Of a stretch of DNA of 64,000 bases, positions 33,981 to 39,745 are shown piece after piece. The notes beneath the pieces were generated by a model, which was given only the letters and a program-made list of their open reading frames with translations, was not told the origin of the DNA and did not search any database. Source of the stretch: Embleya scabrispora (GTDB taxonomy: Bacteria > Actinomycetota > Actinomycetes > Streptomycetales > Streptomycetaceae); the NCBI RefSeq assembly GCF_002024165.1, contig NZ_MWQN01000002.1, positions 434,001 through 498,000 of the forward strand, in the 5' to 3' direction. The number at the start of each line of letters is the position of its first letter. The first letter of the stretch is position 1. A program made the translations under genes and the position numbers.

Positions 33981-34583
33981 ATGAGCATCAAGGTCACCGT
34001 GATCTATCACGACACCGACACGTGCGTACGCGCGCTGGCCGACGCGGTCGCCGCGGTCGCCTGGAACACCGGCGCCGACATCCGGCTGCGCAGATTGCCC
34101 GAGGCCGAACCGGCCGCGCCACGGGACGGGACCAAGGCCGACCCGCTCGCCACGGTGGGCGACCTGACCTGGCCCGACGTGGTGATCCTGGGCGCACCGG
34201 CACGCGACGGCGACGTCGTCGCGCTGCTGCACCGCCTCACCCGCTCGGCAACCGCGTCGGCGACCGACGCGGCCGCCCGGGACATGCGCGACTCCTGGCA
34301 GCGGCGATCCTGCGAACAGGTCTTCGGCGTCTTCGTCACCACTCCGGCCCCCGACACCCGCCACGGCGGCCTGATGCGCGACTTCGCGATCATCCGCCCC
34401 CGGTCCGCGACGGACGACGACCCCCACCCACGCCCGTCGATCGCCACCCTCACCGAACTCACCGCCCGCACATCCGCCACGGCCGACCCGACCCTGCTCT
34501 CCCTCGACCTGGCCAGAATCCAAACCCGCCGCTGCGTCGAGATGGCCGCCCTGCTCCGGGCCGAACGAGTCCTGGTGGCCTGA
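33981..34583 (+). CDS. Flavodoxin-fold (WrbA-like) oxidoreductase
   Basis: A 200-residue protein with a flavodoxin-like start (IKVTVIYHDTDTCVRALADA) and the alternating strand/helix pattern of WrbA and other FMN-dependent NAD(P)H:quinone reductases (TWPDVVILGAPARDGDVVAL). The classic FMN phosphate loop (S/T-x-T-G-N-T) is altered to YHDTDTC, so flavin binding is not assured. GGGGAG precedes ATG 33981. It sits at the edge of the terpene locus and could supply electrons or reduce the terpene product (inference). Confidence 0.65.
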   Translation: MSIKVTVIYHDTDTCVRALADAVAAVAWNTGADIRLRRLPEAEPAAPRDGTKADPLATVGDLTWPDVVILGAPARDGDVVALLHRLTRSATASATDAAARDMRDSWQRRSCEQVFGVFVTTPAPDTRHGGLMRDFAIIRPRSATDDDPHPRPSIATLTELTARTSATADPTLLSLDLARIQTRRCVEMAALLRAERVLVA

Positions 34584-34636
34584 GACGCGAACGGGCGGCC
34601 CCGGCCGGTCGGTTGGATCCGCGAACGGCCGCCGGA

Positions 34637-34666
34637 CGGCCCGGTCTTCGGTGTGGGACCGGGCCG
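34637..34666. terminator. Hairpin between flavoprotein and terpene cyclase genes
   Basis: A perfect 10-bp stem with a 10-nt loop, 53 nt after the flavoprotein stop and in the gap between two convergent genes. Confidence 0.6.
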
Positions 34667-34771
34667 CCTGCCCGCCTCCCTGCGGCGGGCTCGACCGGTC
34701 GCAGACTACGGCCGCCTCACATGATGGCCGATCGGTCCGACATCGGCGCCGGCGGACCCGGGGAAGCGGGT

Positions 34772-37418: not shown

Positions 37419-38843
37419 GTGCACCCTGCCCAACCGGCGATCACCTCGGCACAGTGGTGGGGGTCACCGGCAGCCTGGTCCGACGTGAAGGGATGGCGTG
37501 TGCGCACCATCGAGGACGTACCCACCGCACCGGGCGCTCTGCCCGGCGTAGGACACCTCCACCGTCTGGCCGGTCAGCGGCTGCGCTTTCTCGAATCACT
37601 GCCCGGGGTGGGGCCGTTGGTCCGGATCAGACTGGGCACCGCGCCGGTGTACGTGGTGACGGACCCCGTTCTGGTCCATCAGGTGCAGTCGTCCAAGGGC
37701 CGCAGCTTCGGCCGGGGCAAACAGTTCGAACGCATGATCCCGCTCCTTGGACACGGCGTGATCACCTCCGACGGCGAGCTGTACCACCGCCAACGGCGGG
37801 TCATCCAGCAGGCGTTCACCCCGGCGCACATCGAGCGGCACGCTGCCTCGATCCGGCGGCGCACGCGGGAATTGTGCGCCGACTGGACGCCGGGTCGGCC
37901 GGTGGACGTCCTGGAGGTGATGAAGGCGCTCTCGGTGGCCGTGACGGCGGAGACCCTGTTCTCCAACCGTATGCCCGACGGCGTCCTGGCCCAGTTGCAC
38001 CGGGTGTTGCCGGTGATCGAGCGGGCGGCGGTGGAGCGGCCGATGTTGCCGAAGGTGGTGGATCGGCTGCCGCTGCCGTTTGTCCGGCGCGGCGACGAGG
38101 CCGTGGCCCGGATGCGTGCGTTGGTGGGCGAGGCCGTCGCCGCGTGCCGCGAGCGGTCCCCGGAGGGCGACGGCGACGTGGTGGCGTGCCTGCTCGCCGC
38201 CCACGACCCGGACACGGGGCGGCCGTTGGCCGACGAGCTGATCTGCGACGAGGTCATCGCCATGCTGATCGGCGGGGTGGCGAACGTCCCGACCACGCTG
38301 TCCTGGGCGTGGTACCACCTGGCCCTGCGCCCGGGAGCGGAACGCCGGATGCTCGCCGAGATCGCCGAGTCCGCCGAACCGGGCGACGCCGTACCGACAT
38401 CGACCGATCCGCAGGCGCTGCCGTACACGCGGGCGGTGATGTACGAGACGATGCGCCTGCACTCGGTACAGCTGGTGACCCAACGCACCACGGCCGCGGT
38501 GGAGTTGGGCGATGTCATGCTGCCGAGTGGCACCGATACCGCGTACAGCCAGCACTCCCTGCACACCGACCCGCACTTCTGCCACCGGCCCGAGGCCTTC
38601 TCCCCCGAACGCTGGCTCCCGGACAGCGGCTGGAAACCGCCGCGGCACGCCTTCGTGCCCTTCGGCGGCGGCCGGTTCAAGTGCGTCGGCGACAACTTCG
38701 CCCTCGCCGAGATGCTGGCCACGCTGGTGGCGGTGGGCAGTTCGTGGCGCCTGACCCTGCAACCCGACGCACGAGTGCGGACATCCGTACGAGAGCCCAT
38801 CCCCGGCCCGAGGGGACTGATGCTGATCCCGAAGCCGATCTGA
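37419..38843 (+). CDS. Cytochrome P450, second of the terpene locus
   Basis: A 474-residue P450 with heme loop FGGGRFKCVGDNFALAE (Cys422), ETMR (343-346) and the SPERWLP meander. The I-helix reads MLIGGVANVPTT; relative to the conserved Trp295 the acid-alcohol pair is replaced by Ala288-Asn289, a different change from that of the neighbouring P450. GTG 37419 has GAGGAGG 8 nt upstream, which decides the start. It is divergent from the first P450. The two share no long identical stretch, so they are not a recent duplication. A role in oxidising the cyclase product is inferred. Confidence 0.9.
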   Translation: MHPAQPAITSAQWWGSPAAWSDVKGWRVRTIEDVPTAPGALPGVGHLHRLAGQRLRFLESLPGVGPLVRIRLGTAPVYVVTDPVLVHQVQSSKGRSFGRGKQFERMIPLLGHGVITSDGELYHRQRRVIQQAFTPAHIERHAASIRRRTRELCADWTPGRPVDVLEVMKALSVAVTAETLFSNRMPDGVLAQLHRVLPVIERAAVERPMLPKVVDRLPLPFVRRGDEAVARMRALVGEAVAACRERSPEGDGDVVACLLAAHDPDTGRPLADELICDEVIAMLIGGVANVPTTLSWAWYHLALRPGAERRMLAEIAESAEPGDAVPTSTDPQALPYTRAVMYETMRLHSVQLVTQRTTAAVELGDVMLPSGTDTAYSQHSLHTDPHFCHRPEAFSPERWLPDSGWKPPRHAFVPFGGGRFKCVGDNFALAEMLATLVAVGSSWRLTLQPDARVRTSVREPIPGPRGLMLIPKPI

Positions 38844-38989
38844 CCCGCCACGGGCCGGCGGCTTCGCCGCCAGGTGTCGGCCCGGGGCCGGTGTTCGGCG
38901 GCGCCGGCCTGCCGTCGAAGAACGGCGAGCGTTGCCGCGCGGCAACGTCGTCGGTGCCGGGGAGCGACACGGAAGCGCTGCGGCATCGG

Positions 38990-39040
38990 TCGGGCCGGTA
39001 AACCGAACGGCCGCGTGGGCCGGTTCGTTTACCGGCCCGA
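38990..39040. terminator. Bidirectional terminator between P450 and NmrA-type genes
   Basis: Left arm 38990-39008 and right arm 39023-39040 pair over 18 bp with a single bulged base and a 14-nt loop. The right arm contains the stop codon of the minus-strand NmrA-type gene. Confidence 0.75.
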
Positions 39041-39745
39041 CGCCCCGCCGCCCGCGTGGGCGAGGGCGCTGGGGGTGCGGCAGCCGACGATCGCCGGGGC
39101 TTCCCGGACGAGTTCGTCGTCGGTGAGCGCCGTCACCATGAACAGGGCGAAGTCCACCCGGCGGGTGCGGTCGCTGGCCAGCACCGGATCGCCCACGTGC
39201 CGGCTCCATACGGGCAGGCCCTCGCCGTCCCCCTCCCTCAGCGTGCTGCCGCGCACCACCGTCCATCGGGTGTTGCTGTCGAACACCCGTCGGCACGCCT
39301 CGATCTGGTCGTCGATCTCCACGGCCCGGACGAGCCTGCCCAGCACGGCGGCGACCCGCACACCCAGGGTGAACAGCCGCGAGTAGCGGTCCTTGCCGTC
39401 GCGTGTGATGTGCCAACCGCAGGAGAAGATCAGCCGCGCGCCCGGTCGGGCGTGGTCGAGCACCGCCTGCGCCGTGCCGGACGCGTACTGCCGCACGCCC
39501 CACGGCACCAGCACCGTCAACACCCCGTCGCACCCGTCGACCGCCCGCCCAATCACGTCCGGATCGTTCGTGGGCCCGGGGACGACGGTCATCCTGCCCT
39601 CGAACGCGGCCAGCTTCGGCACACTCTGCTCCCGGCACACGCCGACCACCTCGTAGCCGCGCTCCAGGCACTGCCGGACCATGTACTGCCCGAGCTTGCC
39701 CGAGGCCCCGACGACGCAGACCTTCCTCATGCCTTCCGTACCCAT
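39029..39745 (-). CDS. NmrA-like NAD(P)H-binding protein
   Basis: A 238-residue Rossmann-fold protein with KVCVVGASGKLGQYMVRQCL at the N-terminus, followed by a DVIGRAVDGCDGVLTVLVPW strand. The middle contains CGWHITRDGKDRYSRL, and no classical YxxxK is visible. I use ATG 39745 because GAAGGG lies 7 nt upstream and a GATATT -10-like element at 39764-39769 would place the transcript start near 39757. ATG 39760 and 39730 are alternatives. It is divergent from a TetR gene across twin palindromes, so it is probably the repressor's target. Confidence 0.75.
   Translation of the reverse strand: MGTEGMRKVCVVGASGKLGQYMVRQCLERGYEVVGVCREQSVPKLAAFEGRMTVVPGPTNDPDVIGRAVDGCDGVLTVLVPWGVRQYASGTAQAVLDHARPGARLIFSCGWHITRDGKDRYSRLFTLGVRVAAVLGRLVRAVEIDDQIEACRRVFDSNTRWTVVRGSTLREGDGEGLPVWSRHVGDPVLASDRTRRVDFALFMVTALTDDELVREAPAIVGCRTPSALAHAGGGASGR

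What the first reader, a model, noticed from the sequence alone, without database searches (positions are those of the whole stretch)
33981..39745. Compact terpene locus with a cyclase and two P450s
A flavodoxin-like protein, a class I terpene cyclase, two divergent P450s and a nearby NmrA reductase form a small biosynthetic locus. I do not recognise this set as the geosmin, 2-methylisoborneol, albaflavenone or pentalenolactone pathways, which have other partner genes. It may make an oxidised terpene not yet described. The boundaries at 33.98 and 39.75 kb are inferred from the flanking non-coding DNA and terminator hairpin.
Basis: partly seen in the sequence, partly recalled or inferred. Interest (0 to 1): 0.8.

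Follow-up and report, generated by a model that had tools for sequence, protein, structure and literature searches.

The report
Three-gene terpene module, unusual P450s
A rare three-gene unit in soil bacteria pairs a terpene-making enzyme with two oxidising enzymes that have both lost residues such enzymes normally use to activate oxygen, so it probably makes an undescribed oxidised terpene by unusual chemistry.

Summary
The window is, by inference, from an Embleya species. The cyclase and the two divergent P450s are real. The unit is smaller than reported: cyclase, P450A and P450B, 34,772-38,843. The block recurs with the same order and orientation in E. hyalina and in two Streptomyces (71-75% protein identity) without the window's flavodoxin-like or NmrA genes. 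The flavodoxin-like gene occurs in an Embleya genome that lacks the block, and the NmrA gene lies beyond a hairpin; I leave both out. The cyclase forms its own long-branch clade with no supported sister; no pathway model reaches its cut-off. The locus is rare: 2 of 4 Embleya genomes, and no close match in 97 other Streptomycetaceae genomes. The two losses are probably independent. The cyclase has His for Asn in its NSE triad; Pro or Ala there is published in an active enzyme, so this alone is mild. All three genes are under purifying selection. Best reading: an oxidised-sesquiterpene pathway with non-standard oxygen activation. Product and chemistry are untested.

The parts
34772..35854 (-). 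class I terpene cyclase, 360 aa; ATG start behind GAGGAGG, overlapping the last 86 nt of P450A
   Evidence: PF19086 98.5 bits; orthologues 94/75/75%; start and upstream bases read
35495..35512 (-). aspartate-rich motif DDRFSE (residues 115-120), intact
   Evidence: invariant in 4 of 4; coordinates
35060..35086 (-). NSE-triad position, HDILSGMRE (residues 257-265): His in place of Asn
   Evidence: H in 4 of 4 orthologues; 151 N, 1 A, 1 S in 153 readable others; coordinates
35769..37235 (-). P450A, ATG start behind AAGGAGG, upstream of the cyclase on the same strand
   Evidence: PF00067 (scanned on the longer ORF to 37433); best PDB match 3dbg, E 7e-73; start
36432..36455 (-). P450A I-helix motif GGIPATAD: Pro-Ala where Glu/Asp-Thr is usual
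   Evidence: 4 of 4 orthologues; 0 of 39 distinct relatives lack both residues; coordinates
37236..37418 (.). divergent intergenic region between P450A and P450B starts, presumably holding both promoters
   Evidence: sequence shown; sigma-70 scan of 33700-40000 found no site
37419..38843 (+). P450B, GTG start behind GAGGAGG, divergent from P450A
   Evidence: PF00067 195.6 bits; orthologues 91/71/73%; start
38271..38297 (+). P450B I-helix motif GGVANVPTT: Ala-Asn where Glu/Asp-Thr is usual
   Evidence: 4 of 4 orthologues; coordinates
38990..39040 (.). hairpin between convergent P450B and NmrA genes; candidate two-way terminator beyond the right end of the block
   Evidence: 23-nt arms, 87% complementary, 5-nt loop

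Best explanation
A self-contained three-gene terpene module. The cyclase ionises a prenyl diphosphate, most likely FPP from the primary pool, and releases a cyclic sesquiterpene. P450A, whose gene overlaps that of the cyclase, and divergent P450B oxidise it in turn. Shown: gene content, order, conservation, rarity in the sets searched, altered motifs, purifying selection. Inferred: substrate, product, order of steps. Because both P450s lack the acid-alcohol pair that delivers the proton for Compound I, I infer that oxygen activation is substrate-assisted (a hydroxyl or ordered water on the terpene replaces the side chains), or that the reaction is one that tolerates the loss, such as epoxidation of an alkene, rather than standard C-H hydroxylation.
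For: Same three genes, order and orientation in 4 of 4 carriers. Of 40 window ORFs outside the block, one has a strong match beside the block in one Streptomyces carrier and none in the other. Close matches only in 2 of 4 Embleya genomes and in no other of 101 Streptomycetaceae genomes searched, where the next best are 29-31% identical. P450A and P450B match the pentalenene-oxygenase and albaflavenone P450 models, below cut-off; 22 of 39 distinct relatives have a terpene synthase profile match in the same or a nearby frame of their 4.3-kb locus, including all 8 of P450B's nearest clade; the 3 of those 8 neighbours that I scanned all pass the selinadiene synthase cut-off. Acid-alcohol pair: 38 of 39 relatives keep Glu/Asp and 34 of 39 keep Thr; none lacks both; the core has Pro-Ala (4 of 4) and Ala-Asn (4 of 4) with Cys and ExxR kept. 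Holding P450A and P450B together costs 30.4 log-likelihood units, p-AU 0.03. dN/dS 0.20-0.41 for the three genes in 12 of 12 pairs computed. Review passages say that breaking the pair hinders Compound I formation and can favour epoxidation, e.g. CYP101A1 T252A (PMC9112060).
Against: No product, expression or enzyme data. The rejection of a single origin of the two motif losses is modest (p-AU 0.03) and the group was named because both lack the pair. Four of 39 relatives have Asn and one Ala at the Thr position, so P450B's Asn alone is not rare; several of the 39 are near-copies of each other. The dN/dS values are no lower than those of two flanking genes against E. hyalina (0.42 and 0.30). Some active P450s lack a full pair (EryF, P450cin: recalled, not from a call). 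A prenyl synthase 8 kb away (47161-48306) leaves a diterpene possible. No structure could be predicted.
Confidence: 0.6

Rival explanations
1. Ordinary terpene cluster: the motif changes are neutral drift and both P450s are standard hydroxylases.
For: Pro or Ala at the NSE Asn position is tolerated: the active (-)-alpha-amorphene synthase has Pro, and close homologues in more than 40 streptomycetes have Pro or Ala (PMC5082573). P450B's Asn at the Thr position occurs in 4 of 39 relatives.
Against: The changed residues are invariant across carriers that differ at 25-29% of positions, and none of 39 relatives lacks both residues of the pair.
Confidence: 0.25
2. The P450s are not oxygenases but do another haem reaction (isomerisation, dehydration, peroxide-driven oxidation) or act as terpene-binding helpers.
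For: Loss of the acid-alcohol pair in both P450s with the haem thiolate kept. Other P450 groups without the pair do such chemistry (recalled).
Against: The nearest relatives keep at least part of the pair and often stand beside terpene synthases like tailoring P450s. No peroxide source is recognised in the block.
Confidence: 0.15
3. The five-gene cluster of the first reader, with flavodoxin as P450 redox partner and NmrA as alcohol dehydrogenase.
For: The genes are adjacent and kept together in E. hyalina (92.5% each).
Against: E. hyalina is colinear over the whole held flank, so adjacency there says little. The flavodoxin-like gene occurs in G002 without the block. Neither gene is found near the block in the two Streptomyces. 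The NmrA gene is divergent from a TetR gene with an imperfect palindrome between them.
Confidence: 0.05
4. A diterpene pathway fed by the polyprenyl synthetase at 47161-48306.
For: PF00348, 175.7 bits, 8.3 kb to the right.
Against: Not found in the held flanks of the three other carriers, though E. hyalina's held flank ends before that position. The best-scoring NCBIfam cyclase models are sesquiterpene synthases.
Confidence: 0.12

Closest known systems
selina-4(15),7(11)-diene synthase with a neighbouring P450
   Same: Best NCBIfam match of the cyclase; P450B's 8 nearest relatives stand beside terpene synthases, of which 3 were scanned and pass this model
   Different: 129 bits against a cut-off of 450; 27-31% identical to the neighbours of P450B's relatives; NSE Asn is His; no supported sister relation in the tree
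pentalenolactone pathway (pentalenene synthase, pentalenene oxygenase PtlI)
   Same: P450A's best NCBIfam model is pentalenene oxygenase, 370 bits
   Different: Below the cut-off of 800; cyclase 33 bits against 675; acid-alcohol pair absent
albaflavenone pathway (epi-isozizaene synthase, CYP170A1)
   Same: 3dbg/3el3 is the best PDB match of both P450s; the entry is titled 'Putative cytochrome P450', and that it is CYP170A1 is recalled
   Different: That protein has Gly-Ser-Glu-Thr in the I helix; cyclase 37 bits against 675; two P450s instead of one
(+)-T-muurolol synthase (PDB 9hqd/9hqi)
   Same: Best PDB match of the cyclase, E 3.4e-34
   Different: Its NSE motif reads NDVLSYPKE in the alignment, as in the Roseiflexus enzyme of PMC5082573
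(-)-alpha-amorphene synthase
   Same: Active enzyme whose NSE motif begins with Pro; homologues have Pro or Ala (PMC5082573)
   Different: 50 bits against a cut-off of 540; the core has His

Membership tests
class I terpene synthase | aspartate-rich DDxxD/E motif | tested here: met
   DDRFSE in 4 of 4
class I terpene synthase | NSE triad N-D-x-x-S-x-x-x-E | tested here: not met
   HDxLSGxRE in 4 of 4: first residue His, Asp/Ser/Glu kept. The position is known to tolerate Pro/Ala, so the filing rests on the profile match (98.5 bits) and the other motifs
class I terpene synthase | pyrophosphate-sensor Arg and C-terminal RY | tested here: met
   R210 and RY342-343 in 4 of 4
selinadiene synthase equivalog | score over the curated cut-off of NF041565 | tested here: not met
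   129 against 450
albaflavenone pathway | epi-isozizaene synthase and its P450 orthologue | tested here: not met
   37 of 675 bits; P450A 337 and P450B 271 of 700 bits
pentalenolactone pathway | pentalenene synthase and PtlI orthologue | tested here: not met
   33 of 675 bits; P450A 370 and P450B 239 of 800 bits
geosmin synthase | two fused cyclase domains in one protein | tested here: not met
   single domain in 360 aa; a two-domain frame lies elsewhere at G000:C1:595111-596838
2-methylisoborneol pathway | GPP methyltransferase beside the cyclase | tested here: inconclusive
   none in the three-gene block; a general methyltransferase lies at 45231-45887, 6 kb beyond it; a GPP methyltransferase model was not tested
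cytochrome P450 | haem Cys motif and ExxR | tested here: met
   both in 8 of 8 core sequences
canonical P450 monooxygenase | I-helix acid-alcohol pair | tested here: not met
   absent in 8 of 8 core sequences; none of 39 distinct relatives lacks both residues
canonical P450 monooxygenase | NADPH/O2-dependent oxygen insertion | not testable with these tools
   needs an enzyme assay

The most novel reading that the evidence does not exclude
Two P450s of separate ancestry were recruited to one cyclase and each lost the oxygen-activating pair, because the shared terpene skeleton carries its own proton relay (for example a cyclase-installed hydroxyl). The module would then be a natural pathway built on substrate-assisted or Compound-0-type P450 chemistry.
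Probability: 0.25. Interest if true: 0.75.

Novelty: new variant of a known kind. Interest (0 to 1): 0.47.

Why it matters
Cyclase-P450 pairs are a common way for bacteria to make oxidised terpenes, and this one lies outside the product clades that could be tested. If both P450s work without the acid-alcohol pair on one substrate, the module is a compact natural test of how P450s activate oxygen, and of whether loss of the pair steers them to epoxidation or to substrate-assisted hydroxylation.

Tried and rejected
Five-gene cluster: rejected on synteny. Degenerate P450 genes: disfavoured by dN/dS of 0.20-0.41 and intact haem motifs. The NSE Asn-to-His change as a headline: demoted after reading passages of PMC5082573. 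A shared operator in the P450A-P450B gap: none evident by eye in an alignment of the four gaps. Metallo-beta-lactamase-fold gene beside the block in both Streptomyces as a fourth member: no match in the window. The NmrA-like gene at 26865-27833 as a member: 55% identical to a gene 3.8 kb from the block in Streptomyces sp. AV19, but not found in the S. caatingaensis locus and present (79%) in G002, which lacks the block. A close homologue on known plasmids: none; all 50 records with a match were under 60% identity and the best listed was 29.9%. Structure prediction: tool switched off, so active-site geometry was not modelled.

Limits and dropped rows: all comparison sequences for the NSE and acid-alcohol counts come from genomes of the same class. 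NSE count: 183 aligned domains, 159 after removing identical ones, 4 of them core, 2 gapped at the site; many of the rest are geosmin synthase halves (62 representatives at 60% identity including the 4 core). Acid-alcohol count: 46 fetched relatives, 39 after removing duplicates; some remaining ones are near-copies. The genome search scored only the best first-look candidates per genome where there were many. The genome-contig scan finds close relatives only. The terpene synthase tree has 18 weakly supported forks. Papers were seen as find-passages (PMC10509563; PMC12860625, its outline and abstract; PMC10563020; PMC9112060; PMC13288456; PMC5082573); all others as search listings.
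Full report
What is there. The window lies in an 11-Mb genome whose nearest held relative with the locus is of the same genus (G001, 94%), and the named record with the same 94% match is Embleya hyalina, so I infer an Embleya species. The cyclase (34772-35854, -) matches PF19086, both P450s match PF00067, and the NmrA-like gene matches NAD(P)-binding models; the flavodoxin-like gene has only a weak partial match to the WrbA-type model. The cyclase start (ATG 35854) stands behind GAGGAGG and overlaps the end of P450A by 86 nt; P450A starts at ATG 37235 behind AAGGAGG, P450B at GTG 37419 behind GAGGAGG.

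How big is the unit. A scan of one genome per species found three other carriers: E. hyalina, Streptomyces sp. AV19 and S. caatingaensis (close relatives only). In 3 of 3 the cyclase, P450A and divergent P450B keep order and orientation. DNA similarity of the block between the window and the two Streptomyces begins at window 34768/34776 and ends at 38831. I compared 40 window ORFs outside the block with the two Streptomyces loci (9 kb on each side). One has a strong match: the NmrA-like gene at 26865-27833, 7 kb left of the block, is 55% identical to a gene 3.8 kb from the block in AV19. The other hits are partial, 32-42% identical, and in S. caatingaensis there is no strong match. One Embleya genome without the block (G002) is colinear with the window up to 34599, with its own copies of that NmrA-like gene (79%) and of the flavodoxin-like gene (67%), and then no longer matches the window in the 9.8 kb held to the right. 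A fourth Embleya genome, G003, has neither the block nor the flavodoxin-like gene at the limits used. The block is therefore three genes, 34,772-38,843. A 23-nt-arm hairpin at 38990-39040 separates it from the NmrA gene at 39029-39760, which is divergent from a TetR gene with an imperfect palindrome between them.

How rare. Close matches: 2 of 4 Embleya genomes; in 101 Streptomycetaceae genomes only those two, the other three matches at E <= 1e-30 being 29-31% identical. With the four-row profile, 2 of 117 further genomes of the class match at E <= 1e-30, and both of those proteins read NDLISYAKE, so they are not orthologues. Plasmids: nothing at or above 60%.

What the cyclase is. The best curated model is selinadiene synthase at 129 of 450 bits; the best solved relative is (+)-T-muurolol synthase. 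In a tree of 62 representatives the four orthologues form one clade (100/100) on a branch of 1.04, with no starred set larger than themselves. The highest full-length identity outside the clade is 31%. The aspartate-rich motif, the sensor Arg and RY are kept. The NSE triad reads HDxLSGxRE in 4 of 4. Among 155 other distinct domains, 153 are readable there: 151 Asn, 1 Ala, 1 Ser. This matters less than it seems, because an active alpha-amorphene synthase has Pro there (PMC5082573).

What the P450s are. Both have the same best solved match, 3dbg (recalled as CYP170A1), and match the pentalenene-oxygenase and albaflavenone models in NCBIfam, far below the cut-offs. Of 39 distinct relatives (34-41% identical to the query that fetched them), 22 have a terpene synthase profile match in the same or a nearby frame of the 4.3-kb locus. 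P450B's nearest clade is 8 of 8 so linked; three of those synthases were scanned and all three pass the selinadiene synthase cut-off.

The unusual feature. 3dbg has Gly-Ser-Glu-Thr in the I helix. P450A has Gly-Ile-Pro-Ala and P450B Gly-Val-Ala-Asn, each in 4 of 4 species. Among 39 relatives 38 have Glu or Asp (1 Ala) and 34 have Thr (4 Asn, 1 Ala); none lacks both. The haem cysteine and ExxR are kept in 8 of 8 core sequences. In the tree P450A and P450B are separate clades; holding them together costs 30.4 log units (p-AU 0.03), whereas joining P450B with the selinadiene-linked clade gives a tree 2.4 units better than the free one. So two independent losses are likely, not certain. All three genes are under purifying selection: dN/dS 0.20-0.41 over 12 comparisons; two flanking genes give 0.42 and 0.30 against E. 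hyalina, so the block is not more constrained than its neighbours.

How it probably works. The cyclase makes a terpene, probably C15; P450A and P450B oxidise it. Passages of a review state that breaking the acid-alcohol pair hinders the step from Compound 0 to Compound I and can favour epoxidation, as in CYP101A1 T252A (PMC9112060). I therefore expect substrate-assisted proton delivery or epoxidation. This is inference.

Literature. 'Embleya' with 'terpene synthase' gives no paper; 'Embleya' with 'terpene' gives 8 and 'caatingaensis' with 'terpene' 7, none of which, judged by titles and abstract starts, describes this locus. Five terms for an acid-alcohol pair missing in natural-product P450s gave no paper together. 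Terms for an altered NSE triad gave two papers, both looked at in passages. The main text of PMC10509563 does not hold the names Embleya, scabrispora, hyalina or caatingaensis. The library holds only open-licence papers, so publication elsewhere is not excluded.

Verdict. A real, rare, compact terpene module outside the pathways tested, with a conserved double loss in its P450s. A new variant of a known kind; moderate interest until chemistry is shown.

Noticed in passing
47161-48306 (+): Polyprenyl diphosphate synthase-like gene (PF00348; best NCBIfam scores below their cut-offs), 8.3 kb right of the block.
   Followed up: partly
L012 (S. caatingaensis), about 11649-12593 on the - strand: A second, unrelated terpene cyclase (NDDVHD, NDIYSYPRE) stands about 1.7 kb from the block.
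   Followed up: partly
L011:11070-12005 and L012:10101-11033: A metallo-beta-lactamase-fold hydrolase (Pfam run on L011 only) stands beside the block in both Streptomyces carriers but has no match in the window.
   Followed up: partly
26865-27833 (+) and L011:13744-14649: NmrA-like gene 7 kb left of the block with a 55% identical relative 3.8 kb from the block in Streptomyces sp. AV19; also present in G002, which lacks the block.
   Followed up: partly
L156, L158, L160: P450 and terpene synthase profiles match the same open frame (893-1207 aa): apparent P450-cyclase fusions in unnamed Streptomycetaceae.
   Followed up: no
39771-39810: Imperfect palindrome between the NmrA gene and the divergent TetR gene, a candidate operator for a separate regulatory pair.
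   Followed up: no
L007 / L131 (G000:C2:596418-597041): Terpene synthase-like frame in the same genome with strongly altered metal motifs (HDRYAE, SDYYASR-D).
   Followed up: no
42768-44372 (-): FAD monooxygenase whose best NCBIfam match is rifampin monooxygenase (311 of 800 bits).
   Followed up: no
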